DNA from: Branchiostoma floridae
Taxonomy: Eukaryota > Chordata > Leptocardii > Amphioxiformes > Branchiostomatidae
Direction: 5' to 3'
Length of the DNA: 64,000 nucleotides
Assembly (NCBI RefSeq): GCF_000003815.2
Contig: NC_049987.1
Span: 24,478,668 to 24,542,667 of the forward strand
Shown: positions 4,076 through 30,116 of the stretch, piece by piece
Layout of the letters: each line of letters starts with the position of its first letter
Numbering within the stretch: the stretch's first letter is position 1
Made by a program: the position numbers and the translations under genes
The notes under the pieces: generated by a model
The model's input: only the letters and a program-made list of their open reading frames with translations
What the model was told of the DNA's origin: nothing
Database searches by the model: none

Positions 4076-5134
4076 GATTTGTGTGCAGTGTGTGCAGTGA
4101 AATAGAGACACGTACGGTTTACATGTGGATTAAAGCATTTTAACCTCCTTGACGTCACCAATGAACTCTGATTTGCATAGAATGTAAACAGGTTGGGTGT
4201 AATGCTTTCTCCGCCCACTGCGCGGTGGGTCTGTATGGGAGGCGTATTTCACCATAACACCGGATATTCGTCGTCCCTAATTTTCCTGTATCAAATGGTC
4301 TTCTCCTTAAATCCACGTGTATTAGAACATTCCTTTACTTTAACTACTAGTATATTACCGCCCTTGGTGCACAATTCGCGGCGTAGTTGTCAATGAGCAA
4401 AGTTTATTCGTTTTGACTCTGGTTTGAACCTGATGCCGTGTACTCGATCTTTTTTGTTTTGATAATTCTATTCTTTTATACTCAGAAAAAGTTATGAAAC
4501 GCTCAGATTTGCTTAGACCGGTCAGTGATATGGCGTCGGCCGTTTTAAATGTCAGACCGTTCACGAGGCCGTATATAAACGCGATTAGGCTACTCACCAA
4601 CTGGCCTACACGCGACCATGTCCAAACGTGTTCCAAAGTCTTTTGAGCAAAGTGGCTGCATGGGGTATTCGCCTGTTCGGTCACTACAGTGTATTGCTGT
4701 CCCCTGTCTCAGTCACGTGAACATTGGCCAAAGGGCTGCGGAGATGAACACACCTGGCCGCCAATAAACACGTTACATGTCGCGTGAGGCAGTGTCAAAG
4801 TCAATGGTTAACCGAGTTGCCACGTATCAGCTTGGGACCAGCGAAGGGGGAGTGAGGTGCGACACAACTCCGTGGTTAGCGACGCTAGTTAAACTCAACT
4901 ATCTGACGATAGATATTAGTGACAATAGTTGCAAAGGTAAGACGATTGCCTTACTTTGAGATCATGTTCACGTGAGTTTCTGTAAGATGATAGAGTGTGG
5001 GTGGGTGGGTTGGGTGGTGTTGGGGTGTATGCTACCATTTTCCTAAGTCAAACTTAAGTCTACGGAATACAAACTTTATATTAGCAACTAGATAAATTTT
5101 CTAAGGAGTCAGATGTTTCAGATAGCCCCCACTA

Positions 5135-5665
5135 TTTTACATAGAAAATCTTTATTGCCACGACAAAAGTACAGCGACTTACGTAAGGTCTACATGTATA
5201 ACAACTACTTACAGTAAATTAAACACACATATATGGATATGTATAGGTATGAATACATCAACATATAGGGTCTAGCATGTCATTTACACTATTGGGTATA
5301 CGGTATAAGCATTCGTGAATATATCTGACTACTTGTACATGTACACAGTAAGGATTATCGCCTCCCAGAATGTAGTTGAATTCATCTATCGAACGGAGAG
5401 TAGCAACTTCTTTAAAGCAAGCAGAAAGTAATGTAAACAGCTCTGTGTTTTTATCATTATATCGAGAACAATCCATAACAAAGTGTCGTTCATTTTCGAT
5501 CTCGGTTGGGCAGAATGGACAAAATCTCTGGTCACGGGGATTTTTAGTATATCTTCCGGCTTCTATGTTTAGTTTGTGACTACAGATTAATATCTTTGTA
5601 ATTGCTCTACGAAGTTCAAAACTGTGTACATTCGAAAGATACTTCTTTTGTCCGCATATTTCCAT
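5135..5665 (-). pseudogene. 3' fragment of a non-LTR retrotransposon (zinc-knuckle C-terminus)
   Basis: A 135-residue frame (5258-5665) carries the C-terminal signature common after reverse transcriptase in many invertebrate LINEs: an RxxLTKxxIxxHKLxxExGR-like run followed by CPFC, then HFVMDC (C-x2-C-x9-H-x4-C). There is no polymerase domain on the 5' side, so it is 5'-truncated. An AATAAA on the minus strand near 5152-5157 fits its 3' end. A stand-alone small gene is possible but less likely. Confidence 0.5.
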
Positions 5666-6216
5666 TAGTGACTGAAAATGACAGTGTGACCTCTAGTGGC
5701 TTCTTTGTATATGGTCATACAAGCAAGTGGTTGTTTACTGTATGCCCCGTAGTTCTGTAGACCCAGGACTAATGGACATCGTTGTTTGTACGTTGTTGTG
5801 TTTGCTAAAAATTATCGTTCACAACAACACAATGCAGTAATTTATTCCAGATTCCGCCTGGCTGATTAGTGATAGGCGACTTTGGCCAAGTTAGGAAGAC
5901 AAGTCTGGTAGGAGTTAATTGGCCTAGGAGTGTACTAATCGTTCGGCGATAGCTGGAAAGACTGCAAAGTCTGACTGAAATCCACTGGCACTTATTTGGC
6001 CAAATTCTCCTCTTTTTTTCATCCAGATGATATGTCTGCTTTGAGACTACCACTGCAGACTGATCAAACCATATCATACATATCACATCTAAACCGCCGC
6101 TTTTCTAGTGACGCATGGAAGCATAACGAAATTAAGCAATAGTCGTACATTCACAGGTGGGCAAGCAGAACTTTGATCTTGAAAGGCGGACGTCAAAAGC
6201 TTTACAAGATTGCAAT

Positions 6217-7221
6217 ATGGCGGCTGCACCGTCAAGTTTGGGGGAACAAATTCGTGAGGAACTGACCTGCAGCATCTGCCTGGAGCTGTTCACCAGGCCC
6301 AAGGTGCTGCCCTGTCAGCACACCTTCTGTGAGGACTGTCTGTATGACCTTGGAAGGAGGGACAAGACCTTCCATTGTCCAATTTGTCGTCAGAAGTTTA
6401 GCCTGACCCATGGAAGCGTGGGTTTACCTGACAACCACCTGGTTGCAAGTCTGTGTGAAAGGCTGCAGCACGCTACACTTTCAGGGGAAACGAGGGAATC
6501 GCCTAGAAACAGGTGCAGCTTTCACCCCTCAGTGGAAGTCAAGCTCTATTGTATGCAATGTCAAATACCGGCTTGTAGTGAGTGTTGTAAAGAGGCCCAC
6601 GATGGGCATCGTCTCACTGACCTTCAAAAAGCTGCAAAGGAAAAGAGACCCACAGTGCAGGCCTTGATCGATGAGGGGAGGGACATGTTGGAAATGTACA
6701 GCAGCTTTATCAGAGGTCTGAGGCAGACAGAGAAAACTCTGAATGAACAGAAACAGCAGACAGACAAAAGCATCCTTCAGGCGCAGACAGGCACAATGGT
6801 GAAGGAACCCATAGAGAGAAGATACCATCTTTTCTTTGAATCACATCAAAGTCACCGAGAGAACTTGGAGAAAATACAAACTGAAAGGGACAGAGTGTTG
6901 GCAGTTATCAATGAACTGTCTTCTGCATGCAATCGAGCAGAACAAGAAATGGAGCAAGGAGAGGTGAAGCTTCTTAGTCAGGAAACTACTTTGACAGAAT
7001 TGGTAGGAAAGTACAGAGGAAGAACAGCACCAACTCCTGTGCGAACCCAGCCTGCTGTCTTTCAGCCCACCGACGCCCCTGTACCAGGATTGGGGTATTT
7101 GATGATTCAGTCTCTTACATCTGCACCAATCCCAGTAGCAATGGAAACATCATTGGTAGAGTTAGAAGCAGGTAAGATCTTTGTAGCAGACAGAATGGAG
7201 GACAGAATTGTTAGTGTCTAA
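6217..7221 (+). CDS. TRIM exon: RING, B-box 2, coiled coil
   Basis: Start ATG at 6217 lies in CAATATGGCGGC, a YY1/TISU-like context; the open frame reaches further upstream but without an earlier ATG. The RING is complete C3HC4: C18, C21, C33, H35, C38, C41, C54, C57. B-box 2 is complete: C100, H103, C112, C115, C120, C123, H128, H131. A long Glu/Gln/Lys-rich helix follows (about 135-280). There is no NHL, filamin or B30.2 domain. A strong donor (GAAGCA-G/GTAAGA) at 7171/7172 leads to the downstream exons. If it is not used, the frame runs 16 more codons to TAA at 7219-7221, giving a 334-residue RING-B-box-coiled-coil protein. The activity expected is E2-dependent ubiquitin transfer with coiled-coil dimerisation. 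Confidence 0.85.
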   Translation: MAAAPSSLGEQIREELTCSICLELFTRPKVLPCQHTFCEDCLYDLGRRDKTFHCPICRQKFSLTHGSVGLPDNHLVASLCERLQHATLSGETRESPRNRCSFHPSVEVKLYCMQCQIPACSECCKEAHDGHRLTDLQKAAKEKRPTVQALIDEGRDMLEMYSSFIRGLRQTEKTLNEQKQQTDKSILQAQTGTMVKEPIERRYHLFFESHQSHRENLEKIQTERDRVLAVINELSSACNRAEQEMEQGEVKLLSQETTLTELVGKYRGRTAPTPVRTQPAVFQPTDAPVPGLGYLMIQSLTSAPIPVAMETSLVELEAGKIFVADRMEDRIVSV

Positions 7222-10200
7222 AGGAATGTAATATCTTGGTAATATTGGTAATCTTCAGTACTAGATTTTATATGATCAGCCATTTGCCGAAATGAATAAA
7301 AGTATTATATCTCAGAGTCACCTTCAGATAAGAATTATTAGTTTTTATTCAGAAATATCATTTTTGATTAACCATGAAAGTTAAAAAGAGATCTAAAATT
7401 ATTTAGAGTTGATCTACCCTGTTTATCAACAAAGAGAACGAATTGAATAAACGTACATACCGTCAGAAATAACAAAGACACTTACAATGTACAAATATCA
7501 GACATATACATCAAATTACATTTCTTGACAATCCTTCAACTTCCAGGTTTTCAAAGCACGTTGGAAAGCATTTTCAGTCGGTTAGACGAAAAGGATGCAG
7601 GGTTACTCTATCGGGTGTGGTCTGCACGTACTGCTGATCAGCAGGGTCCGCCGGAAAGGACCCAGCAGATGGTGATGATGGCGCAGCAAAGTCCAGTCTT
7701 GAAGAGGCCAATTGACTTGATGAAGTCCATGGTGAAGAGTGGGTACATCACAACCGGTACGTGTACAAATCATTTTACGTATATGATACTAGATAATTCA
7801 CTTGAGTTGTCATTTTAAGTGTAGTGTCAAATGCGATCTCGCTATGACAGCATAATAGCAGCACACTCAAAACATGTTGCAGATAAACTGGGGAAAGCTG
7901 TTATCGATAAACCCAAGACATTATGATCATAACGTTAACGTTACATAAAAGGCCTGAGGACAGACCTTGTCAGGGTAGCCACTCTAAATGTGAAAAGCAC
8001 CATTATAAGTGACAGCGAGAAATAAAGCAGAAGCACTCAGCTCACAATTTAAAAGCGTATTCACATATGCTTACCTTTCCCACATGCGCTCTATCTCAGC
8101 CTCGCTCTAAATCGAAGCGCATCCTGGATATCCCAAACGAGCTTCTTTGGCATCTTCAATCATAGTGATTGACAGGACGGTGCGGTGATTGTTTACGCCA
8201 TGGCTTCCACATTTGGTTCAACTCGCGAGACGTGACTTTGTGATCCACGGGATCTAAATCCAAGTTTTTCAGAGAAAGCGTTGAACCTAGATTTCATGTG
8301 ATTATGTAACGGCTAGACCGGACCGCGGAGTCCCCAAAAATCATTTGGTTCATGCAAACTATGTTGACTTGGTTCAAGTATATTCAATCTTCTGTCACAA
8401 TTCAAGGTGCACTGTCTAACCAGTAAGTGACCACTGCCTTCCCACTGCCTTCAAAGCGCACATTCTGCATAAACACATCGCATTACCGATCGGAGCGCAT
8501 CCTGGATATCCATAACACACTCCTTCGCTTGCAACGTGTTCCGATATTCCAGATGTGCTTCGAAGCGCGACTGGAAAAGAATCCGCTTCTATTCCGCTGG
8601 ATATCCAGAATACGTCGCAGGCGAAGCAGCGCGTTATGGATATCCAGGATGCGCTCAGATCAGGGCGCATGCATCCTGGATAATCATAACCAGTATATGC
8701 TCTTGTAACCCGCGACGTGTTTTATAATTATATAGAGTAAATCGGTGTACCGAAAGTGCGAAAAGGAACGAAAAGGAGCGAAAAGGAACGAAAAGGAACG
8801 AAAAGGAACGAAAAGGAGCGAAAAGGAACGAAAAGGAACGAAAAGGAGCGAAAAGGAACGAAAAGGAACGAAAAGGAACGAAAAGGAAAGTACCGAAAGT
8901 GCGAAAAGGAACGAAAAGGAACGAAAAGGAAAGTACCGAAAGTGCGAAAAGGAACGAAAAGGAACGAAAGGATCGGATATGAACGAAAAGGAACGAAAAG
9001 GAAAGTACCGAAAGTGCGAAAAGGAACGAAAAGGAACGAAGTATGAAGCAAAGTGAAATAAAATCGATGGGAATATAAGGTAACGGTACTGTGATCGGCA
9101 AATGCATTTGAAACGGACTTTATTTTTGTATTTTGTGACTTGTTCCACGAAATTCCTAGAGCTCCAATGGTTCAACGGTGAACCGGTGGGAAAGTGCACG
9201 CGTGGAAATAGCTAAATACAAATCAAAGGCGATGGGCGGAGTCACGAATCTGTGCGCCCCGGGTTCCCACGCGGGCTGTCACAGATCAAATTGGGGGGAG
9301 GGGGGGGTGTTGAAAGCCGCTGAGTAGCGCGCTAGAAAAACGTTTGACGGGTTGACATTCTGGTGTAGGTTATTTTTCTACGGTCCCAAAAATGTCACAA
9401 AGTCGTTTTCTAGTGGTCCCGACCTAAATTATAAGTGGCCCCGGGCAATCGGGACACCGCGTTGATTTCTATCCGAGGCCTGGTTCCAAAGAATTTTTCT
9501 GCCGAACCCGCACGGGAGACGTGAGTCGCCCGCCAGATCTCTCCGTAGTTTTCCAATATCCTTTGCACAAATTCCTCACGTTGGCCATTTCTTCCCGCAA
9601 AATGATTAATATTCATGGTACAACGTGAAGAAAACTCCTTGGTACAATGTATACATGTCTATCCTTTCACAGCTTTTCTTTTGTCGTGAACGAGCAAGAA
9701 GATATGTCTCCAGTCTCCAGAAAACCATGTTGTGGGCCCTGTTGAAGGGAGCTGTCATGCTCGTGGGGCAGCAGTTTATTAGCATACCCTTCCTGACCAG
9801 ACTTCTATTAGACGTAAACAATCGCAGGTCATTTGCATGCGGCGCTCCCATCTTTGATCTTGGGAGAACAGAAGCCACCCAAATACAACAACAACGCTAC
9901 AATCTTGCCTCATACTGAAAATGTATATTAATCGATATTTATCCATCACCCACCAGTAACTGAATTTTAGTCCTTACTTTCTTATCTCAGTTCTGTTTCC
10001 TTGTATTTCGCTGATCTTCAGAGAATAATTTAGCCACACAAACACAACAGCCTAAAACAGCCCCGTAAAAATTTGATATTGCCAAATTCTGAGTAAAATA
10101 AAAAAACGTTTCATAGGCTTCTAACGCCCGCAGTACCGGTTCCTTATATTCTCATTGATTTTATTTTAGTTTGCTTCATACTTCGTTCCTTTTCGCACTT

Positions 10201-13200: not shown

Positions 13201-16200
13201 GTTGATGATAACATTATGGGAGGATATTACTTAGTAATCTTTGTAAGAAATAATAACTTTGTTTTTGTATGTGTTACGTGTACGTTATGTCATGTGTGTG
13301 AATTTTTATGTCCAGGAAGACTAGCGGTGTACCATCTTGTATCACAGCTAATGGACGAATAAAGCCAATAAAACCCAATAAAACAATAACCCTCCTTGCC
13401 TTGATTCAAAAGTGTCAGTCGAATGATACACTAACATTGCACTGGCGCTACACCGTCGAGGCAAATTCATAATAATCCTGAAACATGTATGCGACCCGGC
13501 ACTTAGAAAGGACAGCAACACTGACAGAGTTTTACGTGCGCCAAATATTTGGCCGCAATACGTCACAAACATGTTTTTCATAGCTGGTGGAGAACAAAGG
13601 GAGAACGTAAGCTTGCGATTTATACAATTAGCACGACTATACAGACTCTTCAGCTGCGCACGTACACAGTCGCCATCGCTAAGCGTATGGTTTAGATGTA
13701 CACCCAGATAAACAAATAAGGTCACATACTTCAGATTCTCATGTGGTGGTGGATACCGAAGTAACCGTTGAGACGAGCGCACGGAAAATACATACAACAT
13801 GTTCAATATTAAACAATACAATTTATGCCGTTTTCAAGACTAACCCTTTCACATATCCCTACTAAGGCCACGTTGATTTGATTATATGGATGACATCCGC
13901 GCTCGCACCATTTTTCGGCCATTTCCCAAAAAAAAAGTTTTTAACTACACAGTAAATTGTGCAAAGCAGCTGTAAAATGAGCACAAATATTCCGTAGATT
14001 AAAAAAAAAGTATCAGAAAACAGATAACTAATGCCATAGAATGCCAAAATGAATCTAAAGTCAAAGAATAAGATGTGAAAGGACAGAAGGAAAAAAAATC
14101 TATTGTTGGTTGGGGGAGGTACCAGTACAGAAAATTCAGGTCCAGAGGATCAGGTCCAGGTCCGGACATAAACCTGGACCTGATTGTGGAAACTTGAGAA
14201 CTGGCAATACTCAAAACAATGGTGATTGGTCAATTTTGCTACAAAGGAATATGTTTGGTGGATTATTGGACTCCCAGACCAGTGCATTTTAAAATCCCAT
14301 CTCCATATAATAAAGGCTAACTGTCTCTGTCTGACCTTTGACTGTAGAAACTTGGTGCAATTGACTCTACTTGACTTCGCTCTTGTTGTCTCTTCGGTTA
14401 GACCCCAAATGCCTGCCGACATAGTGTGTCCATTTTGTAATTGGCGAAACCTGTTCCTCTGTTGTTGTTTTTTTCAGGTCTGTTTTTTTCGGATTGGTCC
14501 AAGAAGAAAAAAATGTTTTGCACCCGTATGATATACTGGTCCCTACACCTAACTGTTGGTATACCATACTATGTGTGTTTAATCCTATGTTCAACCTTCC
14601 TGGCCACTTTGATTTCATACTGAAGGCAACTTTTTTTTTGGCCAAACTTTTTTTTTATTCGCTCGCTCGCATCAGTTTTGGAGTTCCCGGAGGATGTCAT
14701 CCATATAATCAAATCAACATGGCCTTACACTCAAATCGTCAATACAGAAGTTAAACAAATATGGTGAGAGGAGGCTTCCCTGTGGCACTCCATTTGTAAC
14801 GGAGAAGTAGGGAGACAGGATACCCCCCCCCCCATCTCACACACATTCTTTGGTTCTTATACCAGAAGAATAAAAAACGAACTATGTAACATCTATTATC
14901 ATAATACCGGTACGTTTACGACGATTTCTCTAGCCATACTGATTTGACAAATTTTCAACGCATCATTTTCTCCAGTTACATGTTGCTGTTATAGGTTACC
15001 CTTGCCACTTCTTCTGTGTAACTTTTCTGCCACTCTTGTCCTGCTAAAAGCGTAATATTGTAATTGTAACACGCCGCGGAATTACACGGCGAACGGGCGC
15101 GTGGTTCGGAGGGGGTACAAAATACCGGTAGGAAGAAACACGGCACAATTAACTGCCGCTATGTACATTTATACATCCTCTGATGTTCCTCCCTTTTCTG
15201 TCACTAAATGCATAAAACATAAACCTGCATGAGCATACAAAATGTCATGAGAAAACGGACGTATACTGTCAAGAATTTTCATTTAGCTTCTGTCCGTCAC
15301 AACCGCTATGACGTAACACTTCACTGCTAGCGTAGATATACAAATGGCGGGAAAATGGCTGCGTACGTTCAATTTTGCCCATTCAGTCGTAGATCCGGGC
15401 TATTATGCAACGGTTCTTCACACTTTTACATGAGTTGTAGGTCACCAACAGAAATTCAAGATTGTTGTTGAATCATGTTCGTCTTGTGCCGTGAGCATGT
15501 GTAATTATGATCTATATAAATTTGGCAATGAATGTGACAGTGTGTTCGTCCCACGACGAGCTGCCTACCCCGAAATTTAAAAAAAAAGTATACTGAAAAC
15601 TTTTGGCCTTGTTGTCTTCGAATGCATTGTTATCGATGCTTTGTAAATGGTGTATTGGACACCTAGATGTCTGAAGTGTGCACAGCTCAGAAATAACTAT
15701 TGTTGCATGTGTAGATCTCTTTAAGTTCCAGTATTTTTAATCTACCGGTATAAGTCTTACTACCGGTATTATGCCAATGCATGTTACAGCGGTCAATCAA
15801 TTTACAAACAACGTTGACGTGATCAAAGGCCTTTGAAGCGTCGATAAAACAAACAAAAACAGGAGACCCTAACCCGCTGTAGTACTCAATTATTTGCTTT
15901 AGGGTGAAAACACACATGTCAATCCCATGTTTAGTTTCAAAGCCAAATTGAGAATCTGACGTCTGAAGAAAAGGCTTCAGATGGTTCAGCAGGAGAGCCT
16001 CAAGGACTTTGGATAGAGCCGAAGTGATCGCGATTGGTCTTTATTAATTATCAGTACTGGAAATATTGGCAGACTTGTTCTTCAGCACAGGAACAATTAT
16101 TGTGGCTGACCAAATGTCAGGAATGAAATTATGAACAATGGCAGAGGTGAACAACAATGACAGATGTACACAAAGACTTGGGCCGGCATTCTTCAAATGC

Positions 16201-19200
16201 TCATTACTGATACCATCAGACCCACAAGCCTTACCATTGGGCAAGTCCTTGATGATGTCAGCGAGTTCCCGTGCGGAGATTCGCATACCGTCATCAAACA
16301 ATAATGCAGGTGACAAAGCAGACAACACATCGGACTTATGTGTCTGGTTATCAACGGAGTTTAACAGGGACTCAAAATGTGCTTTCCAAAGGTTAGCAAT
16401 ATTCTCCGGACCGGAAGAACCATCAATAGTACACATGTATTGGTTAATACAGACAAGATTTGGAACTTCTTATTTTGCTCCAGAAGTCCTGGTTGTTTCC
16501 AGAATAAAACTTTTGGCAGTGGAGTCAGCTCTAGCGTTATTCTCTTGTTGTTTACATTGTTTAAAGGCATGTTTGAATCTGGCCCTAGACTTAGACATGA
16601 GGTGAAACATAGGGCCAGACCGAGGACGACCCATTTCCTGCCAGAGAATATACACCTCTCGGGCAGCAGAATGTAAGTCTTTAACAACATCATTCCAGCC
16701 CGGAACAGGTTTAAATTTCTAAAGCCTCTAAAGCTATGTTTTGAGGATACCAAAATATTTGCAGAATCTTCCATACACGTAATCAACTGGCGGGAAGGAA
16801 GGTCGATGACATTTTTATGCGACGGCTCAATACAATTAGGGTCTCTGCAAACAAGAGCCTCCACAGGCACATCAATACATAACAGACTAACATGCATTGG
16901 CATAATACCGGTAGTAAGACTTATACCGGTAGATTAAAAATACTGGAACTTAAAGAGATCTACACATGCAACAATAGTTATTTCTGAGCTGTGCACACTT
17001 CAGACATCTAGGTGTCCAATACATCATTTACAAAGCATCGATAACAATGCATTCGAAGACAACAAGGCCAAAAGTTTTCAGTATCTTTTTCGGGGTAGGC
17101 AGCTCGTCGTGGGACGAACACACTGTCACATTCATTGCCAAATTTATAGATCATAATTACACATGCTCACGGCACAAGACGAACATGATTCAACAACAAT
17201 CTTGAATTTCTGTTGGTGACCTACAACTCATGTAAAAGTGTGAAGAACCGTTGCATAATAGCCCGGATCTACGACTGAATGGGCAAAATTGAACGTACGC
17301 AGCCATTTTCCCGCCATTTTTATATCTACGCTAGCAGTGAAGTGTTACATCATAGCGGTTGTGACGGACAGAAGTTGAATGAAAATTCTTGACAGTATAC
17401 GTCCGTTTTCTCATGACATTTTGTATGCTCATGCAGGTTTATGTTTTATGCATTTACTGACAGAAAAGGGAGGAACATCAGAGGATGTATAAATGTACAT
17501 AGCGGCAGTTAATTGTGCCGTGTTTCTTCCTACCGGTATTTTTTACCCCCTCCCAACCACGCGCACGTTCGCCGTGTAATTCCGCGGCGTGTTACAATTA
17601 CAATCTTACGCTTTTAGCAGGACAAGAGTGGCAGAAAAGTTACACAGAAGAAGTGGCAAGGGTAACCTATAACAGCAACATGTAACTGGAGAAAATGATG
17701 CGTTGACAATTTGTCAAATCAGTATGGCTAGAGAAATCGTCGTAATCGTACCGGTATTATGATAATATATGTTACTATCTAGTGTGGACTTGTATGCATC
17801 TAGTTGACCTTGGCTAGCATTGGTCCAATCAACAACTTTCTGAGTATTGGACACACTCGGCATGTTTGTGAGGATAGGAAAATCAACATTTAGGGTAACA
17901 CTCAACGGTAAATGGTCTGAAATAACATTGTCGTATAAAACCTCTATATTGGTGATGTTCTTATATGCAGTATCGCTGGCTAAGCAGTGATCAAGCCAGG
18001 AAGTAGTGCCATGAACATCACTTACATAGGTGAAAGTGTCATTAGAAAGATATTCCATACCAGAGATGTGCAGTTCTGATTCATCACAAAAGTCACGTAC
18101 CAATGTACCAAATCTATTCGTAGGTGAAGCATTAAAGTCTCCTAGTATTATAGAGGCATACATATTACAATCATCAACAAGAGTTCGGAGACCTCATACC
18201 CGCATGAAATATGCAGTTTTTGTAACTTTCTTGTTTTATCCTGTCTCAGTGATTATGCGAATGTGGCTGATTATGCAAATATGGCCGTAAATCTATTTCA
18301 AATGATGGTCTTCTCTTAGTGTATGTCAAAGTCTGTCCCTTTGGTAGAATTCCATTTTATAATGAAGTATACAAATGGCTATCACATGTACATCTTAATC
18401 CATACATGGTAATGTACACCTTTAACTAAGTTGCACATGTCAAACATAAGAAATGAAAGTATCATTTACCAAGGGATCATGGTACCATCACATTAACTAT
18501 ACAAACCCTAATTTGCATAGTTGGTATTTGTAAATGTTCCGCCTGACATAAAGTACAAATTTTACACATCATTAAAAGTCACATTATAGAAAACATTGGA
18601 ATTATAGATAACAAAGTTAATACAAATTCCAAAGCAAGCAACTTGAGGACAATCCACCCTAAAACTAATCCAACTACTCTATAATCACAATCAATACAGA
18701 TTCTTAAGTTTCACTGTCCACAAATATCCAGCCACACACCTTTTGGTAAATGGCATGGCCCACTTAAGCCTGTCAGGTAATGTAACCTGACCCTTATGTA
18801 GCCAGGGGCAACAGAAACCTTCCTCTGGAGACTACCTCTATCTGCGCCTATGGAGTCACTTCTGTTAATAATTAAAACCAAGCAGAGGTGCGGAGATGCC
18901 CCAATTGACACAAAAATCACCCTGCAGTACCAAGTTCAAAGTCAAAGAGGCCCAAAATCCAAACCGCCCGTCTGGCTACCACACTTAACAAATCTACCAA
19001 ATACTATCGCAATAGCACGCTGCGCACTCGAGATATAACACCGAAAACGCACCAAAACACACAAAACACGAACCTTAAAACTTCATACAGGTAATAACAG
19101 AATCAATGTTACCAAGTTTTTTTTAGAAAAACATCTGTATTAGCGGGCGAATCATAAGGCATATCATAATTGTTTCGATAGATTTTTTAATCAGTTAAGG

Positions 19201-22200
19201 AGATGCTATCTGCTATCCACAGAGAAGCGACTGTATATAATATAGTGTATAATGAATGTCAGAGCAAGAAGCGACTGTATATAATACATAATGAACGCCG
19301 GAGCGAACTTCTTTCCGGATGGTATCCAGGCTGAGCTTAGTATTGATGTTGAATATAATTACTAAATTGAGCTACCAAAACTTGTCAGGCTTCTTTCTTT
19401 ATACATAACGTTACCGATGTAAGTTAATTGTGCTTTGAAATCTGTTTTCATCCTGTCGTACATGTATGGTAGTGCATAGCACACATTCATATGTTATGCT
19501 ATTGTAAAAAATGAGTAAATTTGAGTAATCGATTCATATATTACCTTTTCAGGCAACATCAGAATGTTGGAGAAGGACATGGTAGCAGCTGGGATCAGCC
19601 TCCCTGCTATCGCAAAAGACATCCCAGGTTATTGTTTTTAAACTTTTTTTTACCTTCGCCAAGAAGGTTATATTTTGGGTAGAAATTTTTTGTGTCCCAA
19701 TATGTAGGTCAATCGCATATAACTCGAGCAGCTGTGGATGGAATTTAATGATGTTTGGTATTTGAGTAGCGGTTGCAGAAGAGAGGGTCCTTTTTCGAAA
19801 ACTGTTCACCTGGCACTTTTTGCTGGTACTGCAGCGGGACGAGTGTGTGTGTGTGTGTGTGTGTGTGTATTTGCGAACAAGATAACTAGACGCTGTGGAT
19901 CGTTTTGGATGATATTTGGTAGCTATTTAGGGGTTGGGAAACCGAAGGTCAAGTTCAAATGGGCCATCCTGGCGACAAGTTGTAGTACTGCAGCGGAGCG
20001 TCGAAGTTGGCGCTAAAATTGTCCTCAAGTGGCAGGTTCACGATTTTTGACTAGTGGATACGTCTTTGGGCAGGGAGGAAGTCGTGCAAGTTTGGGCCCC
20101 CTGGTGACTTGTTTGAAACTGTAAGCACCAATTTCTTTTCAAACTTTGGACGAGAATAACTCGAAAACGTAATTTCAGATCGTCATGATTTTTTGTATGT
20201 AGGTTGTCTAAGTGAAGACTTACATAATGGAATACTAATTACAACCAACCTAATTTGCATAATTAATGAGGAAAGCTCATAAATCCACTGCACTCCATGA
20301 TAAGACTTTCAAACTTATCACATATGTAACTGAGAAAGAGAGAAATGTCAATAGATATCAATCATGCAAATGACGACCTCATTTGCACAATTAATAAGAA
20401 AATATGAACATGTTGACCAATCGTCATAGCCTGGAGACCTACATAATGAGATAATAATTATGTGAATAAACAGCTAAATTGCATAATTAATGAGGCCAGT
20501 TTGTAAATCCACTGCATTCCACGATAGGATTTTCAAGCTTGTCACATGTTACTGATTAAGAGAGAAATGTCAATAAATATTAATTATGCAGATGGCAACC
20601 TCATTTGCATAGTTAATGAGAAAATATCATGATAATTCCATAGTGGCACATAATGGGAATTTTATACTTACAACATTATGAATCTTCGTGAAGGTGAACA
20701 TTATTAGAAATGAATCATGCAAATTTGTTTCATTTATATAATGAAATGTTAATTATGTTAATCAGATGCTTATTCACATAATTGATTGAGAAAGTTTACA
20801 AATCCCCTACATTATAGGGTAAGAATGATTTCAGGGAAACTAGATATACTTACCTAGGTCACAAAAACAAACAGTGTTACAAATGTAGGTTAAGTAAACA
20901 TATCATGTAAACATATGAATCAGGTTGTGAGAATCTCCTTGCACAGCTGTGTTTAAGTCATTTTTTTCTTTTCTGGCCATTTCCTTTTTCTCGTCCCTTT
21001 TTCACCAAGATGGTTTGCCAACATTGTTATATTTTCAGTTGTGCCGTGGTGGAGGAGCTATGGTGTGGGTCTGTATTCTGTCAAGAGCATAACTTGAGAC
21101 AGTGTGAACTTGGGAAGTACCTGTTTTGGAAATGAAGATTAAGTTCCAAAATGGTTTCCCTTCCGTTTTCCTACGGTACTGCAGTGTCTGTGTATGTATG
21201 TGTGTTTGTTTGTTTGTGGATAAATTTTCCCCGTTGTTAGTTGGGATGGATAAAATGGAACTTCCAACCACTGCAAACACACGTTCATGCAGTCGGTTGC
21301 TTTTGGAATAGGTACTCTTAAGAAATACATGAATGAAACCTTAAAGTCTTGAATAAAGGCAGGATTATTTGCGAAGGTATGTGATCGTGAAACTCTAGTT
21401 GTTTTTTTAATTCCCGCGATCTACTTTGGATATACATTAACTTGAATGCATTGAAACTGTACAATGTCTTTATAAAAGCGATATAAAAGAAAAGATCATT
21501 GAGGATTGACGTACGTATTGCAAAGATCAAACCGCTTAGTTCTATCTCTTGTTATTGTGGCATAAATTAAGATGTTTTTGCCCACCTTATTAAATTCGTA
21601 ATAAGCTTCTTTTGAATATCTTCTTATGGTATATAAGGGGTATACTGAAATGCCGTTGTTCGTGAGGGTCTACCAACGCATCACCAAAACAGTTTTCTTG
21701 CACATTTGCAATTCCTATTGGTATGATGATAAAGTTTTAGACGTACCTCAGTATTGTTTTATTCCAATTAGATTGTAGTGATTTCTACCTCAGGCGCATT
21801 GTAGTTTGGAGAAAGTCACCAACTATATCTAGGTGCTAGTAATGCAAATAAATAACAAGAAATGCAACATTTGCGAGCAATTACGAAATATTTCGTTCCA
21901 TTTCTCTCCGCATGGAATAATGCTGTTCCACAATTCCCCCTATCCAAAAAGTAGAACATTCCAAATAACGAAAATAAAGAGTTCTGTGCCCTGGTATTTT
22001 GGCATTATCGTGCCATGAAAATGTCCGTACTGGACTTGAAAATTATTGATTTGGGGCCTTTTTTTTCTTTTTTCAACCAAATGACCTGAGATTTGGAAAT
22101 TAATCTGATATATGGCTGCAGGGATTTATTCCCTCTTTTGGCATACACCATTTCAGAATAATGAAGTCCCTAGTCTTCTTTTATTTCATAGCTGGTTAGG

Positions 22201-25200: not shown

Positions 25201-28200
25201 GGGTATCGGTCAATAGTCTTGCGTCAATCCAACGATTGAAGACCGATAGGCGAGCAAAGACATAGTTATTAATCATCGAGCGCAAATCGGATGGCGAACG
25301 CCCGTCAGTTGGGCAACGTTCGGGCGACGTTCGCCCGACTTCCGTTTGTTTACAAATATTGAATTTCTGGGAATGTGAGGGTAATTCTAAAATTGTGGCC
25401 GCTGTGGCAGTATGTAGGCTGGCTTTATGACACACTTTCTTTTCTTGCGTGATTTCTATTGTGCCCGCGCATTCCATTCATTGGTTAAAAAGATTCCGAC
25501 AACAAAATAAGCAACATTTATTGATCTCTTGCCTTTTTTGAGGAACGTTTTGTGTTACCTTGTCCGCGTGCAAGAGGTCATGGGAGGTTTATTATCATAG
25601 ATTTATTCACCGTCGATCTCACGAGCCTCGCGTACATGTGAGGGGGACAGTTTTGAGGCGAAAAATACGCAAGACCATCTTAAGATCTTAAAATCAGCCG
25701 ACCTTCCTGCGATCGCGAAGAACGTCCGAAGATCGTATATAATGTGAGGGGGGTATAAGGAGCGCTCCCGATGCCAGCCATATGGGCACGATAGGCCAGG
25801 CACGAGGGGCCGACTGTACCACTATACGTGTAGTACTATTTCCTAACTGGGAATAACAAATTTTCAATCAATTTTTTTTATGTTTCTATCGCTAGAGCAC
25901 CCCTTCTTAATTCTCAATCATCAGTTTTTAACAAATGAGCTTAATTACTTTTTAGGTATATCTCATCATAGTCCCATACCTACGGTATGGTGGAATGAAA
26001 TATAACAAGTTCCTCAACTGATATCGTTTCATCGTTTTTGGTTTATCATCTTGAAAGGGGTTTTGGAGGAGTTATGCTGCTCAAAGACAACAGAGACGTC
26101 CGTCATACCAAAAGGCGGTAAAGTGGAGATTCCCGGTTTTGTCAAGCTCGCTGTGCCACCTGGCGCCCTTCAAAGAGACACGACGGTTACCGTCTCCATA
26201 GTAGACATTCCCGGTATCTTGAGGGGTCCTGAAGGCGTCAGTTGGACCTCCGGCTACCCCTGGTCCCTGGGTAAGAAGGCCTGTCCACGTGAGCTACTGG
26301 ATCATGTGCTGTTCTCCCCAGCAGTCGGCGTCAACCTACATGGTGCGAAACTGAGTCGACCGATTGAGCTAGAGACTTGGCGGCCGCCTGGTTCTGAAGG
26401 AATGGAGTGTGTCGTGCTGAAGTATCATGCTGGCGAAGGCTGGAAAGATATCACAGCTTCAACCAAACTACAGAGATATCCGAATTCGGACAAAGTATCC
26501 ATTTCTCTGCATACCTTTTGTCCGGTGACTCCGTTTTGGATCACCCCTGCTGCCACTGGGTCGTCCCTGAGGTCCCGGGATCCTAAAAGCACAGTGACAA
26601 ACACAGTAATCCATGCACTGTCGTCAAATACTCTGGAATGTTGCTTTGCTGCTTATATCAAGCCCCTTTCTACAGCTGGCCGAATGCGATTCCACGTCGT
26701 CTGCAGAGAACGGAGTGTCCAAGCAGAAGAACACCAAGCAGGGTTCAAGTTGTGTGGATCCAATAAAGCCACTCGTCTTCTTTTCCATGGCGATGACATT
26801 GATGTTGCTGTAAGTTTAAATGGATCCCCATACCGGTCAAAGCAGGTGAATGTATGCGCCGGACAGTGCCGCGAACCAAGCGGTCAGCAAATACAAATGA
26901 ACATTGTCAGACCAGAAGGAAGTCTCATCGCAGGCGAAGTGCAAGTCAGGAAAATTCAACAACTACCATGGCCGGTTGTATGTGAACTTGATTTTGATGA
27001 GGTAAAGATTAGCTGCTATTGCGTATCTGACTGTAAATTAATGTTTTTGTCTTTAAACTGTAAACAACATAGCTGTTTTCAGGTACACAAACCCGAAAAT
27101 TCTACTCAGAGTAATGGGCTTTTCAATAAAACTCACGTGTTGTGAATTTCTTTTTCAACGAAAATAATCAGTAAATAGTGACGTGCTGTGTTTTCTGTTT
27201 CAGGAAGGGGATGATTCACCGAGTAAGTATATTTCATCGTACTGCAAATGTAAATCATTATTTCACGACCCCATTCCTTCGCCAAATGATTTTAAAGTGA
27301 TAACTGATGTGTCAATTGTGTTTGTCATTAATAATCCAGATACGGTCCTTATTTGCATAAAAAAGGTAATAAATCACCACCTCCCCAAATAAAAGACGTA
27401 CACAATCTATGTTAAGAAAGAAGGGTTTAATCACATTTTCTGCTGATTTGTGCAAATGAGGTCCTCATTTACATAATAAACCTTCAATGATGTTTACCTC
27501 TACATAACTTCCTAATGCCACAAGTAAGTAATTCCCGCCATTTACCACAATGAGGTTAGAGCATTTCTTATCAATTATGCAAATGATGTCTTCATTTGCA
27601 TAATGCTTATCTATCAATATTCTTCTTTCTCATTTACCAATCCCACATGTTGCAATAGTAGACAGCGGGAGTGTTGTTAATCCTGCTAGCAGACATGTGC
27701 AGGCCGGCGGGCATGTTGTCGAGCCGACTGGAGCAGGTTTGGACAATTTTCTCATTAGATATTCAAATTAGATCCGGATTTCAAAGACCTAATCACATAC
27801 CGAATATCAATACAATGCATCCAGGCGTTCTTGAATTATGCTGGTCTTTTACAACACACACGCACAAAAAACACCACACAAAATATAACCTTCTTGGCGA
27901 AGGCAAAACTTGTTAATGGGGTTATTAAAGCCCTGTATGGTATTCATCTCTTGAAGGAGTCAAAGGCATGATGACAAGTAGTAGAAATAAGCGGAAAAGT
28001 TGTCTCCTACAGTAGAAACATAAATCTATCATATCAGGACAAATACCATAACTTAGCATTCATTGTCAAAAACAGTTAATGTGTTCATTCTAGGTGGCTT
28101 TAATAAAAACGTCGTTGTGCACCAAATATGTGTACATGTTAAATATGACTGATTTTTCATGCTGAATACAACTTTAGATACATGTATATTGTTCATTATC

Positions 28201-29177
28201 TATAATTCTCTCATTATATGTCAAATGAAGAAAGAGGTATACATATTTTAATTTCTAAGAAAATGATTTGTTACTTCAGCAAAATCAATATCAACGTCAT
28301 TTAGAAACTGGTGGATAAGACAAAAACAATTCCATAGCGAGCTAAAGCGCTTAATATTCCAATTATTGTGAAAGGCATCCTTACTGTTTCATTGTGATGC
28401 TAACATTACATTTCTCCATACAGGCAAAGATGGAAGTCGGCGCTCACGAATGCAGCCCGGCCACAAACCGTCTTCTCTTATGGTGTCGGCAAAGCAGATG
28501 ACAGTGCACGAACGCCAATCGACAGACCATGGAGTAGGGCGTAGTAGGGCCAGAATGGGCTCGAATGCAAAAGGTGGAAACAACTGTTACATTTCTGTTA
28601 TTTTTTCATTAAAATGTATTATAAGAAATGAATTCTGAAACAATTCTGAAAAGAAGAAAACTTTCTGCGTTAAAGAACAACAGTTTGTTCATAAGTTAAG
28701 ACTTTTTGATTACATAATTTTGCTTACAGCATAAGAAGGTTAGACACCCAGGTAATAAGATACGGCAAATAGCAGTTACTCAAGCAACAGGATATGATTT
28801 TCAAACCGTCAGACGTTTCAGACAACTTCCGTTGTTGCTGGAGAGCAGTTTTTTATCCTCAGTAGGAATTGCTATGCATACGAGATGAAGCCAATTTTGA
28901 TAGTCCAATTGGAAAAAAAAAACGTAAAGACAAGTTAAGACGAAGTTGATACAAATGACTAAACTAGCTCCTTAAGCTTCGTATAAGTTTAGACATCCAG
29001 GTAATGAGATTCGCCAAATAGCGGTAACTCAAGCAACTGGATATGACCCAGAAAACGCTCAGTCGTTTCATATAACATCCGTTATCATTCGTCAGTGTCA
29101 GCGTCGTATCCAATTGCTTGAGTAATTGCTATTTGGCGAATCTCTCTCTCTCTCTCTTTTTCTCTCTCTCTCTCTCT

Positions 29178-29245
<68 letters not shown>

Positions 29246-30116
29246 AAGAGGGGGGTAATTATGACACATGCCAAGCAGTAGGTCACCCTTGGACTCATAC
29301 AGCTTTGATTCTTTAGCCCCAGTTCCAAAAGTCACCAAATACTTCCACTTCATCAAGGAAAGAGTAGCCGGGGAATGGAAGAACCTGGCTGACACATTAG
29401 GGTTTGAGTGGGAGGACATTGAAAACATTGAGGGGAGAGAGATCGATGCCAAGAGTTGCTGCAGAAGAATGCTGAACGACTGGTATAAGAAGAACGGTAA
29501 CGCCGCCACGATAGAGGTGTTGATGGGCGCCCTAGCTGGACGGAAGCTACAGTTCGTCGTGGATGCTCTACGCGATGCCAAAGAGTTTCCAGGCAAGACT
29601 TCTTCCTGTACTAATGTAACCATGACCTTAAGGAAGTTAACAAATTCCCCCTTAAAAATGGATTGTCTTTGGTCCTCTTTCGTATACCCGATATATTCAC
29701 ATAACTTAGAAGACATGGAAGAAGACATTGCTTACGTTATTCATGCCATGAAAAAGAAAATGAAAACCATCACATAATTTTCTTTTTTTTTCATTATTGT
29801 GTATCTGTTCATTAGAATGAAGACAAAGTAGGCAATCAAAAGCAACCGTCCAAAGAAAAGAAACTTGCATTGTGGGAGTTTTATAGTATACCTTGCATAG
29901 AGGTTTTATGACTCGTTATAAGGATGTGGATACCTATTAAAATAAATATGATGATGTTGTTACTTACTACGTTTAGTATCACTATGTGGTTTAATTAAAC
30001 TATTTTCTTCCGTTTCAGAGCTACAAAACCGTGACCAGCGTCTTCCCGACATCAATACTTCCCCCATGTCACGTAACCTCGTGTACCCTCGCAGACCACG
30101 TGACGGTCACAATTGA
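6217..30116 (+). CDS. TRIM-DED-ZU5-UPA-Death fusion protein (eight-exon model)
   Basis: Exons: 6217-7171, 7547-7756, 19553-19627, 26058-27001, 27204-27222, 28424-28573, 29323-29592, 30019-30116. The total is 2721 nt, exactly 907 codons with the TGA stop. Intron phases agree at every join (1,1,1,0,1,1,1); the first exon of the ZU5 part has no ATG of its own. Predicted order: RING (C18-C57), B-box 2 (C100-H131), coiled coil to about 280, DED-like (319-413), ZU5 (428-571), UPA (601-727), basic Ser-rich linker (735-784), Death domain (785-874). RING-B-box-coiled-coil proteins are E3 ubiquitin ligases; ZU5-UPA-Death modules occur in UNC5, PIDD and ankyrin-type scaffolds. A cytosolic ubiquitin-linked death or immune scaffold is inferred. 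The alternative is two neighbouring genes, a short TRIM and a ZU5-Death gene with an unseen 5' exon. Confidence 0.6.
7295..7300 (+). promoter_or_regulatory. Intronic polyadenylation signal AATAAA
   Basis: An AATAAA lies 74 bp after the TAA that ends the read-through form of the TRIM exon. With intron 1 retained it could give a short transcript coding only RING-B-box-coiled coil. This is inference from position; the hexamer is common by chance in AT-rich DNA. Confidence 0.35.
7547..7756 (+). CDS. Exon 2: N-terminal part of a DED-like domain
   Basis: Preceded by CTTCCAG and followed by GTACGT; 210 nt, phase 1 on both sides, open only in the frame that continues the TRIM exon. The residues form amphipathic helices (LESIFSRLDEKDAGLLYRVW early; IDLMKSMVKSGYITT late). 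Joined to the next exon, the IDLMxxMxxxGYITxxNIxxLExDM pattern matches helices 4-5 of death effector domains. The canonical RxDL motif is not visible, so the call is death-fold, DED-like. Such an exon is unusual after a TRIM coiled coil. Confidence 0.6.
8090..8690. repeat. Cluster of GCATCCTGGATATCC palindromic repeats in intron 2
   Basis: The motif GCGCATCCTGGATATCC or its reverse complement occurs near 8118, 8485 and 8638, with shorter versions near 8600 (CTGGATATCCAGAATACG) and 8665 (GCATCCTGGATAATC). Copies in both orientations can form nested hairpins. No coding content. Confidence 0.5.
8748..10206. mobile_element. Foldback-type element with tandemly expanded left arm
   Basis: The end TACCGAAAGTGCGAAAAGGA at the left recurs inverted at 10170-10206 (TTCCTTTTCGCACTTTCGGTA). 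Inverted similarity also covers 9040-9090 against 10130-10185 (GTATGAAGCAAA, GGGAATATAAGG, GGTACTG), about 75 bp in all. The left arm is expanded into an array of a 10-bp unit (AAAAGGAACG or AAAAGGAGCG) interrupted by four copies of the terminal motif, spanning 8748-9045. The 1-kb interior has no recognised protein; a 97-codon frame at 9625-9918 is unremarkable. Confidence 0.6.
10835..11945 (+). mobile_element. 5'-truncated non-LTR retrotransposon (RT C-terminal part and 3' end)
   Basis: An open frame reading into MKLNPKKCKAMHVYFSK (from about 10835 to TAA at 11586-11588) matches the segment after the RT active site of Jockey/CR1-like LINEs: HKMKLNPKKC, VKLLGLFVQADLGW, LVRPACEYAVAAWHPGL, RIETIQKRACRTILG. 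The catalytic FADD block is missing, so it is dead on arrival. The 3' UTR ends with AATAAACCATTCATTATTATTATTA, a typical simple-repeat LINE tail. It lies in sense orientation in intron 2 of the TRIM-Death gene. Confidence 0.8.
12191..12679. mobile_element. Terminal-inverted-repeat element spanning the N gap
   Basis: The left flank GCCGGTGTGACAGCGATCTC, followed by a run of C, is mirrored at 12650-12679 by a G run then GAGATCGCTGTCACACCGG. Inner motifs also repeat (GCGAAAACGCTA twice; GTGATCTCG and CGAGATCAC inverted). Runs of N (12225-12383) interrupt it right after the C tract, so length and interior are unknown. Confidence 0.5.
12225..12383. other. Assembly gap (159 N)
   Basis: Undetermined bases, bordered by a C homopolymer. 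Frames drawn across it are meaningless. Confidence 0.99.
12675..12795 (+). repeat. Interspersed repeat, also at 61925-62046
   Basis: About 115 bp shared with 61925-62046 at roughly 80-85% by eye, including AACACACCAGCTT, GCAGCTGGTTATATTACAC and TTTTGCACATCTATCTGCAA. No coding sense. It may be the 3' part of a SINE or LINE. Confidence 0.55.
13862..14728. mobile_element. TIR element inserted in the retrotransposon relic
   Basis: CTAAGGCCACGTTGATTTGA at the left and its inverse near 14700-14728 (TCAAATCAACATGGCCTTAC) mark about 40-bp inverted ends that continue through TTATATGGATGACATCC. A related end pair (GGCCACAGCAA, TGGATGACATC) bounds the element at 41101-41656. The interior includes the GGTCCAGGTCC-type repeat shared with 23.6-24.1 kb, itself perhaps a nested insertion. 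Confidence 0.6.
14112..14560 (+). repeat. GGTCCAGGTCC-type repeat family, copy 1
   Basis: Shares GAGGATCAGGTCCAGGTCCG, then CAATACT...CAAAGGAATATGTTTGGT-like and GGTCTGTTTTTT blocks in the same order with 23596-24080. The ends are weakly inverted (GTACCAGTAC left, TATACTGGTCC right). Non-coding. Confidence 0.5.
14889..15784. mobile_element. Mariner-like non-autonomous element, copy 1 (TA target site)
   Basis: 896 bp with ends ACATCTATTATCATAATACC and GGTATTATGCCAATGCATGT, flanked by TA on both sides (14887-14888, 15785-15786). Nearly the whole length is an inverted copy of 16890-17772. It interrupts a recognisable RT frame, which proves insertion. There is no transposase frame, so it would need help in trans. 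Confidence 0.7.
16890..17772. mobile_element. Mariner-like non-autonomous element, copy 2, opposite orientation
   Basis: 883 bp, the reverse complement of copy 1 with few differences, flanked by TA at 16888-16889 and 17773-17774. It interrupts the same retroelement between endonuclease and RT. The two copies form a large inverted repeat with a 1.1-kb spacer. Confidence 0.7.
18190..19552. other. Rest of intron 2, no feature except MITE fragment
   Basis: AT-rich sequence without coding signal apart from the MITE fragment at 19205-19335. A 69-codon frame near 18711-18920 shows no family resemblance. Confidence 0.4.
19205..19335 (+). mobile_element. Right-hand fragment of the 9-bp-TSD MITE family
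   Basis: Contains two copies of the ~39-bp subrepeat (AGCGACTGTATATA, TATAATGAATGTCAGAGC) and the right end TTTCCGGATGGTATCCAGGCT found in the full copies at 34461-34716 and 56391-56814. The left end is missing. Confidence 0.6.
19553..19627 (+). CDS. Exon 3: C-terminal part of the DED-like domain
   Basis: 75 nt after a TTACCTTTTCAG acceptor, with donor CCAG/GTTATT; phase 1 on both sides. It encodes NIRMLEKDMVAAGISLPAIA and a few more residues, completing the helical domain started in exon 2. It sits 11.8 kb downstream of exon 2 across a transposon-rich intron, so the join rests on phase and fold logic only. Confidence 0.5.
19645..20840. repeat. AT-rich interspersed repeat region in intron 3
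   Basis: Starts with CCTTCGCCAAGAAGGTTATA, which recurs inverted at 27887-27906 (TATAACCTTCTTGGCGAAGG), and contains a GT run at 19845-19868. From 20220 a roughly 180-bp motif recurs two or three times (CTCATTTGCA, AATTAATGAG, GTAAATCCACTGCA-like). Related ATGCAAATGA/TCATTTGCAT blocks occur at 27440-27605. Non-coding. Confidence 0.4.
22650..22873. mobile_element. MITE with ~45-bp inverted ends
   Basis: CTTCCTGCGGCCACTCAGGG at the left pairs with CCCTGAGTGGCTGCAGGAAG at the right; the pairing extends outward to GTCAGATTA / ATAATCTGAC and inward to GTACTCCG. CATGTAAGTC lies just outside or at each end. Non-coding interior of about 110 bp. Confidence 0.6.
23596..24080 (+). mobile_element. GGTCCAGGTCC-type TIR element, copy 2
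   Basis: The ends are inverted: TACGTACTAAGGGTACGTAT at the left and TACCAACCCTTAGTACGTA at the right. The left part holds a short tandem of GGTCCAGGTAC. Body blocks match 14112-14560. No transposase. Confidence 0.55.
24932..25763. mobile_element. TIR element in intron 3
   Basis: CTTATACCCCCCTCACAATA near 24936 and its inverse TATAATGTGAGGGGGGTATA near 25740 define the ends; GATCGGAAG / CTTCGGA-type similarity follows inside. The 0.83-kb interior has no recognised protein. Confidence 0.5.
26058..27001 (+). CDS. ZU5 and UPA domain exon
   Basis: The frame is open from an acceptor-like CTTGAAAG at 26051-26057 to a donor GATGAG/GTAAAG at 27001/27002; it has no plausible initiating ATG, so it must be an internal exon. 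The first half is a ZU5 domain (IPKGGKVEIPG, LAVPPGAL, VTVSIVD), ending near LHTFCPVTPFWI (residues 562-573 of the joined protein). The second half matches the UPA domain (RMRFHVVCRE, TRLLFHGDDIDV, QVRKIQQLPWP). ZU5-UPA pairs occur in UNC5, PIDD, ankyrins and the FIIND of NLRP1/CARD8; self-cleaving members have His-Phe-Ser at the end of ZU5, and here His-Thr-Phe-Cys is seen instead. Without splicing the frame runs on to TGA at 27143-27145, intron-like sequence. Confidence 0.8.
28424..28573 (+). CDS. Basic Ser/Arg-rich linker exon between UPA and Death domain
   Basis: 150 nt between CCATACAG and GCAAAAG/GTGGAA, phase 1 on both sides. It is joined upstream through a 19-nt micro-exon at 27204-27222 (after TTTCAG, before GTAAGT) coding EGDDSP, which shifts phase 0 to phase 1. 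The encoded 50 residues are Ser/Arg/Lys-rich and look disordered. The micro-exon is the weakest link in the model, but it makes the phases match. Confidence 0.55.
28735..29115. repeat. Fragments of the 'ACTCAAGCAACTGGATATG' repeat family
   Basis: Copies of GACATCCAGGTAATGAGATTCGCC followed by ACTCAAGCAACTGGATATGA (split here for length) occur near 28740 and 28990 and inverted near 29105. Others lie at about 22745, 22890 (inverted), 32395 and 62453-62763. The best copy is a hairpin at 62.5-62.8 kb. Confidence 0.5.
29141..29241. repeat. (TC)n(TA)n microsatellite
   Basis: A compound dinucleotide tract, about 70 bp of TC followed by about 30 bp of TA, just upstream of the Death exon. Frames drawn through it are artefacts. 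Confidence 0.9.
29323..29592 (+). CDS. Death domain exon
   Basis: Begins after TTTAGCCCCAG, phase 1, coding a clear Death domain of about 80 residues: GEWKNLADTLGFEWEDIENI, then RRMLNDWYKKNGNAATIEVL, then a last helix LQFVVDAL. The donor appears to be CCAG/GCAAGA, a GC donor. It joins in frame to the exon at 30019. If that is wrong, the frame runs on about 60 codons to TAA near 29774 through AT-rich, intron-like sequence. Death domains bind like domains to build signalling platforms. Confidence 0.8.
30019..30116 (+). CDS. Terminal exon with stop
   Basis: Follows the strong acceptor TTCTTCCGTTTCAG. In phase 1 it codes 32 residues beginning ELQNRDQRLPD and ends with TGA at 30114-30116. Its in-frame fit to the Death exon supports the GC-AG intron. 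No known domain. Confidence 0.55.

What the first reader, a model, noticed from the sequence alone, without database searches (positions are those of the whole stretch)
6217..30116. Candidate TRIM-DED-ZU5-UPA-Death fusion gene
Seen: a complete RING and B-box exon with a strong phase-1 donor, two phase-1 exons forming a DED-like helical domain, a ZU5-UPA exon that lacks any start codon and begins in phase 1, and a Death domain exon. The joined exons give exactly 907 codons with no stop. Known: RING-B-box-coiled-coil proteins are ubiquitin ligases; ZU5-UPA-Death modules act in UNC5 and PIDD signalling. I know of no described protein with all of these. Inference: one scaffold could bring ubiquitin ligation, DED and DD contacts together in lancelet innate immunity or apoptosis.
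Basis: partly seen in the sequence, partly recalled or inferred. Interest (0 to 1): 0.88.

Follow-up and report, generated by a model that had tools for sequence, protein, structure and literature searches.

The report
Lancelet death-signalling gene with swappable fronts
The exons described are really there: a lancelet gene joining a death-effector, a ZU5-UPA and a death domain, one of a small family that swaps its front end; but the ubiquitin-ligase piece next to it is a shortened copy of a very common stand-alone gene, and whether the two are made as one protein needs RNA evidence.

Summary
The exons exist as described and join into one 907-codon frame (stop included), if a GC donor is accepted behind the Death domain. 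Middle and back are solid. The ZU5-UPA exon recurs at 10 further loci of this genome (42-56% identity), at nine of them behind both DED exons. ZU5-UPA is supported by a predicted fold, DED by Pfam, below cut-off, in 5 of 9 copies, Death by Pfam. The family swaps its front: a TIR domain at 6 of 10 loci, ankyrin repeats at 2, unresolved at 2, TRIM at none.

The TRIM part is weaker: a truncated copy of a large TRIM-NHL family; the 14 relatives read are single open frames. The 'strong donor' consists of NHL codons, the frame runs through it to its own stop, and AATAAA follows. Yet the donor is strong and in phase, and no other recognisable front module lies in 13.5 kb upstream. I give a real TRIM-DED transcript 0.4. 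New variant of a known kind: domain shuffling in lancelet death-fold adaptors.

The parts
6217..7221 (+). TRIM open reading frame (RING, B-box, coiled-coil-like region), 334 aa with its own TAA stop
   Evidence: Pfam RING_UBOX 5e-13, B-box 4e-7; up to 69% identical to TRIM frames of the same genome, 123 matches listed, 120 of 577 candidates scored
7158..7209 (+). remnant of the first NHL repeat; contains the proposed donor 7171|7172
   Evidence: window GGT AAG ATC TTT GTA GCA GAC against GGG AAG ATC TTT GTA GCA GAC (L054) and GGT GAG ATC TTT GTA GCA GAC (L046); blastn pieces of 17-51 nt at 75-100% to 11 of 14 relatives at this place; DNA homology of the preceding linker ends at about 7140
7295..7300 (+). 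AATAAA, possible poly(A) signal behind the TRIM stop
7547..7756 (+). DED exon 1, phase 1 in and out
   Evidence: 41-48% identical to exon 1 at nine paralogous loci; invariant WSAR in the alignment
19553..19627 (+). DED exon 2 (NIRMLEKDMVAAGISLPAIAKDIPG)
   Evidence: 59-81% identical to exon 2 at nine paralogous loci
26058..27001 (+). ZU5-UPA exon
   Evidence: 10 paralogs 42-56% identical; Foldseek of the model to ankyrin-B ZU5-ZU5-UPA-DD 2.9e-10 and UNC5b 2.5e-7; pairwise dN/dS 0.27-0.49
27204..27222 (+). 19-nt micro-exon joining ZU5-UPA to the linker
   Evidence: splice sites and phase only
28424..28573 (+). linker exon
   Evidence: placed like, and by eye weakly similar to, low-complexity frames behind ZU5-UPA at C19p, C6, C172 and C5a
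29323..29592 (+). Death domain exon; acceptor where relatives have it, GC donor
   Evidence: Pfam Death 1.7e-12; exon ends match those of relatives at C5 and C16
30019..30116 (+). proposed terminal exon
   Evidence: frame only; no homolog sought; if the GC donor is not used the Death exon reads to a stop at 29775-29777

Best explanation
The window holds the eleventh member of a lancelet family of cytoplasmic death-fold adaptors with a fixed core (DED, ZU5, UPA, and DD where found) and an exchangeable N-terminus. At other loci the N-terminus is a TIR domain, mostly with a helical exon before it, or ankyrin repeats. Inferred working: the N-terminal module recognises or recruits; ZU5-UPA holds the Death domain closed, as in UNC5b (recalled), and may release it by cutting itself at an F-[S/C] site; the freed DED and DD then recruit caspase or NF-kB partners. 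At this locus the place in front of the core is occupied by a truncated copy of a TRIM-NHL gene. My working reading: the TRIM is a separate short gene (RING, B-box, coiled coil, own stop) next to or nested in the adaptor gene, and a TRIM-DED transcript, if made, is a young chimera that uses a donor formed from NHL codons. Shown: exons, paralogs, fold matches, NHL codons at the donor. Inferred: transcript structure and function.
For: Paralogs: ZU5-UPA exon at 10 loci, both DED exons in front of it at nine. N-terminal swapping: TIR at C5a, C5b, C5m, C6, C172 and C17, with the helical exon before it at C5b, C6, C172, C17 and partly C5m, not found in the 544 nt held before the TIR of C5a; an ankyrin repeat and DED exon 1 in one open frame at C19m, ankyrin matches upstream at C19m and C19p. 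TIR model pLDDT 83.8; the first 22 Foldseek hits are all TIR. ZU5-UPA fold. The Death exon has its ends in common with two relatives, and 10 of 41 ZU5 hits have one of the first 61 of 150 listed Death hits within 6 kb downstream on the same strand (no control run). TRIM as truncated TRIM-NHL; no TRIM match (E <= 0.01) in 32 overlapping loci around the ten paralogs. F-[S/C] at 10 of 11 ZU5 copies (by eye, alignment).
Against: The donor at 7171 scores 7.13; no GT in 26,781 coding nt of 14 relatives reaches that, 9 come within 1 bit, so a purely accidental donor is somewhat unlikely. No CARD-like, TIR or ankyrin exon was found in about 13.5 kb upstream of the DED exon, 1,231 bases of it N, so the separate-gene reading has no known first exon; the only other phase-1 ATG exon with donor score >=4 in 1-7546 is 4777-4936. 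The window's Death domain is of another subtype than that of paralogs C172, C19p and C8, and behind 6 of 10 paralogs no Death domain was found within 1.5 kb.
Confidence: 0.55

Rival explanations
1. Real fusion: the TRIM exon is spliced at 7171 to the DED exon and one protein TRIM-DED-ZU5-UPA-DD is made; a TRIM-NHL copy landed upstream, lost its propeller and was recruited as a new N-terminal module.
For: Strong phase-1 donor, one of 5 sites >=7.13 on the + strand of the window; sound acceptor that must have some donor upstream; intron of 375 bases; no other recognisable N-terminal module within 13.5 kb upstream; the family swaps N-termini; NHL propeller lost just behind the donor; TRIM part has pairwise dN/dS 0.38-0.50 to 13 relatives.
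Against: 0 of 10 paralogous loci carry a TRIM; the frame continues through the donor in NHL codons to its own stop with AATAAA behind it; an intact relative (L046) has AAGGTGAGA, score 6.7, at the same NHL codons.
Confidence: 0.4
2. Chance neighbours: a core fragment (DED-ZU5-UPA) copied between an unrelated TRIM and an unrelated Death exon, not making a protein.
For: Both ends differ from those of the paralogs; region with LINE-like frames.
Against: No stop in the 315-residue ZU5-UPA exon although pairwise dS to paralogs is 0.7-2.0 and dN/dS 0.27-0.49; splice sites intact; Death exon boundaries as in relatives.
Confidence: 0.1

Closest known systems
UNC5 receptors and PIDD1 (ZU5-UPA-Death; architectures recalled)
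   Same: ZU5, UPA and Death in that order; the fold of the window exon matches UNC5b 3g5b and ankyrin-B 4d8o
   Different: no transmembrane or leucine-rich part noticed (not searched for by a tool); a DED precedes ZU5; N-termini TIR, ankyrin or perhaps TRIM
NLRP1 and CARD8 FIIND
   Same: ZU5-like fold: NLRP1 FIIND 7crw and 7crv among the weaker hits, E 1.6e-3 to 4.1e-3; possible F-S/C cleavage site (abstract of PMC3210808, seen in the listing, cut after 'SF/'; the final S is recalled)
   Different: followed by Death, not CARD (recalled for NLRP1 and CARD8); cleavage not tested
Lancelet TRIM-NHL genes (TRIM subfamily C of Marin 2012, PMC3503706, passages seen)
   Different: the window copy lost the NHL propeller except part of repeat 1
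Lancelet hybrid death-fold genes (PMC2575513 and PMC8195603, passages and one section seen)
   Same: domain shuffling of DED, DD, CARD and TIR; TRADD-N fusions to TRIM and to UPA-ZU5 are mentioned for animals
   Different: no TRIM-DED-ZU5 or TIR-DED-ZU5-UPA-DD combination in the passages seen

Membership tests
TRIM (RBCC) | RING and B-box | tested here: met
   Pfam over cut-off
TRIM (RBCC) | coiled coil | tested here: inconclusive
   aligns with relatives over the whole region; only weak coiled-coil Pfam hits below cut-off; no coiled-coil predictor run
TRIM-NHL | NHL propeller | tested here: not met
   only part of repeat 1 remains; intact relatives L042, L046 and L054 have NHL over cut-off
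DED | match to the DED profile | tested here: inconclusive
   window copy no hit; 5 of 9 family sequences hit PF01335, best 29.5 bits against cut-off 35.9; no solved DED found by sequence
ZU5-UPA | ZU5 and UPA fold | tested here: met
   Foldseek 2.9e-10 to ankyrin-B ZU5-ZU5-UPA-DD and 2.5e-7 to UNC5b, but TM 0.21-0.33 and rmsd 20-21, so the domains match rather than their arrangement; model pLDDT 60, low in the ZU5 half; Pfam ZU5 in 7 of 11, window below cut-off; no solved chain by sequence
Death domain | match to PF00531 | tested here: met
   1.7e-12, 47.7 bits, cut-off 22.6
single TRIM-DED-ZU5-UPA-DD protein | one transcript across 7171/7547 | not testable with these tools
   no RNA data and no other Branchiostoma genome on hand
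TIR (paralogs only) | TIR fold | tested here: met
   first 22 Foldseek hits are TIR; Pfam TIR_2 in 2 of 16 members, best 9.8e-4; AbTir by sequence profile at 1.4e-3

The most novel reading that the evidence does not exclude
A lancelet adaptor core (DED-ZU5-UPA-DD) exchanges its input module between TIR, ankyrin repeats and, at this locus, a captured TRIM ubiquitin-ligase front, recruited through a splice donor made from the codons of the NHL repeat that was then lost: a gene fusion caught young.
Probability: 0.38. Interest if true: 0.65.

Novelty: new variant of a known kind. Interest (0 to 1): 0.48.

Why it matters
If the core is one gene, lancelets have a family in which one death-signalling output is plugged onto different inputs, so input and output can be tested separately. 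If the TRIM junction is real, it would show how a new E3-adaptor fusion arises from a gene without introns: a donor appears inside the last domain, and that domain is then dispensable.

Tried and rejected
The CARD label for the N-terminal helical exon of the paralogs was dropped as unproven: no Pfam hit in 4 of 4 sequences; the PDB profile search gave a TAL effector (7e-4), an ASC fusion at only 0.63 and unrelated chains. Sequence-profile searches of the PDB with the DED and ZU5-UPA alignments found nothing useful. The idea that the Death exon is its own gene starting at ATG 29268 was set aside because its acceptor and donor positions match those of two relatives. A test of neutrality on the 39 bases behind the donor was uninformative: 8 to 15 differences to 14 relatives, binomial tail 0.04 for the best and 0.36 for the median; a first run of it was misaligned by one codon, and a first ZU5 alignment had the window out of frame; both were redone. 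In one search relatives on the minus strand were read in the wrong orientation; redid all 14. One search was a translation in the wrong frame; script one search failed and was rerun. One paper search was unspecific.

Full report
Where it is. The window is G000:C9:24478668-24542667 of a 513-Mb assembly with 431 contigs. I take it to be Branchiostoma floridae from size and content; no tool named it.

Observation. All exons join to 2,721 nt with one stop at the end, provided the Death exon leaves through a GC donor at 29592. Two relatives have CCTG|GTAAGA (C5:467443) and CCTG|GTATGA (C16:16186603) at the same place, and their acceptor is at the matching place, so the window's Death exon looks like an internal exon of the same kind.

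The core is a family. The ZU5-UPA exon finds ten paralogs at 42-56% identity plus one 35% partial match on C9. Nine of the ten have both DED exons in front (exon 1 41-48%, exon 2 59-81% identical); C3 has only a weak exon-2 match (E 0.49). A Death domain was found within 1.5 kb behind ZU5-UPA at 4 of 10 (C19m, C19p, C8, C172); at the other 6 none was found in that distance, one of them (C5b) reading N over much of it. Pairwise dN/dS of the window exon to the ten is 0.27-0.49; two pairs of paralogs give 0.34 each. The predicted fold of the window exon is of modest quality (pLDDT 60.1, pTM 0.44), yet its three best matches are ankyrin-B ZU5-UPA (twice) and UNC5b (E 2.8e-10 to 2.5e-7), with NLRP1 FIIND at 1.6e-3 and weaker; TM-scores are low (0.21-0.33 for the three) and rmsd 20-21, so single domains match rather than the whole. 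At what I take by eye to be the position of FIIND self-cleavage (abstract of PMC3210808, seen in the listing and cut after 'SF/'), 10 of 11 copies have F followed by S (5) or C (5, the window among them) (alignment).

The N-terminus is exchangeable. Upstream of the DED, 6 of 10 paralogs have a TIR domain (C5a, C5b, C5m, C6, C172, C17). Five of these also show all or part of a helical exon that I first took for a CARD; in the 544 nt held before the TIR of C5a it was not found. The TIR model has pLDDT 83.8, and its first 22 Foldseek hits are all TIR domains. Two of 10 (C19m, C19p) have ankyrin repeats; in C19m an ankyrin repeat and DED exon 1 share one open frame. C8 has, read by eye, mobile-element-like sequence and then another ZU5 gene upstream (ZU5 hit at C8:2290); C3 shows nothing recognisable in the 5.6 kb fetched upstream; neither gives an ankyrin match. 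No TRIM match at E <= 0.01 exists in the 32 overlapping loci held around the ten, and no match of the genome-wide TRIM search lies within 100 kb of them (123 matches listed, only 120 of 577 candidates scored).

The TRIM piece. Fourteen of the best relatives were read: each has an open frame of 607 to 655 residues, or over 800 (L050, which runs off the locus), and three of three tested have NHL repeats over cut-off. The window copy follows them to about residue 308; the DNA match ends at about 7140, and after a short diverged stretch comes the start of NHL repeat 1, GGT AAG ATC TTT GTA GCA GAC, the GT of which is the proposed donor. The frame ends at TAA 7219-7221, and AATAAA lies at 7295. So the donor is built from coding sequence of a gene family read as single exons. 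Against this stands its strength: no site in 26,781 coding nt of those 14 reaches it, 9 come within 1 bit; one of these (6.7, L046) is at the same codons, another (7.0, L048) elsewhere. My donor score uses a recalled frequency table.

Which first exon? In the 7,546 nt of window before the DED exon only two phase-1 ATG exons have donors of score >=4: 4777-4936 (53 residues, nothing recognised by eye) and the TRIM. No CARD-like, TIR or ankyrin sequence was found in about 13.5 kb upstream, 1,231 bases of it N (one chance-level ankyrin hit, E 0.19, lies downstream, in the intron before ZU5-UPA). The TIR search gave 46 matches, none of them on C9. The first exon may lie further up: introns of this copy are long (11.8 and 6.4 kb, against roughly 0.1-0.8 kb between the same exons in paralogs).

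The Death domain of the window resembles the subtype found behind other ZU5 genes (10 of 41 ZU5 hits have one of the first 61 of 150 listed Death hits within 6 kb downstream, no control run), not that of C172, C19p and C8. So this copy differs from its paralogs at both ends, which fits exon exchange and, less well, chance neighbours.

Literature. PMC2575513 (passages) reports shuffled CARD, DD, DED and TIR genes in amphioxus; PMC8195603 (passages and section 10) mentions TRADD-N fusions to TRIM and to UPA-ZU5 and DED-TRADD-N expansions in Branchiostoma; PMC3503706 (passages) describes Branchiostoma subfamily C TRIMs, one of them an intronless frame with MATH domains; PMC12373286 (passages) reports Death and death effector domains as the most enriched among dispensable B. 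floridae genes. None of the passages shows this architecture. Searches.

Verdict. The DED-ZU5-UPA-DD core is real and one of a family with exchangeable fronts; the TRIM fusion is possible (0.4), not shown.

Noticed in passing
G000 C5:23.58-23.92 Mb (3 loci), C6:487 kb, C17:14.06 Mb, C172:636 kb (loci L011, L018, L021, L024, L025, L026): Paralogs of the same core carry a TIR domain, and mostly an unassigned helical exon, in front of DED-ZU5-UPA. The TIR model is closest to bacterial TIR domains, and W and E of a W-S-x-L-x-Y-E-F stretch are invariant in 16 of 16 sequences.
   Followed up: partly
G000 C5:23965064, C17:16181053, C4:27941518, C17:3108308 (loci L060, L061, L062, L064): Four more TIR exons 71-83% identical to the family's TIR where no ZU5-UPA paralog was found; what they belong to is open.
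   Followed up: no
G000 C16:16182306-16186860 and 16202323-16206885 (part in L083): Two TRIM frames are each followed 4.3 kb downstream on the same strand by a Death exon like the window's; probably a 20-kb tandem duplication. Whether TRIM and Death are one gene there is open.
   Followed up: partly
window 78-2081 (-): Open frame with a DnaJ domain over cut-off and PHD- and GDSL-lipase-like parts below cut-off, perhaps a LINE first frame that took up a DnaJ domain.
   Followed up: partly
window 49437-53489 (-): LINE-like: an endonuclease and reverse transcriptase frame and a PHD-bearing frame in front of it, both without internal stops.
   Followed up: partly
window 37338-39485 (-), 43783-44814 (-), 34805-35203 (-), 57905-58159 (+): Neighbouring genes: LAMP-like with three luminal stretches, PIG-M mannosyltransferase, a weak homocysteine methyltransferase match, a weak adenylate-kinase-like start.
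   Followed up: no
window 15687-18193 (-), inside the intron 7756/19553: Frames that look by eye like pieces of a reverse transcriptase and an endonuclease, which would explain the long intron.
   Followed up: no
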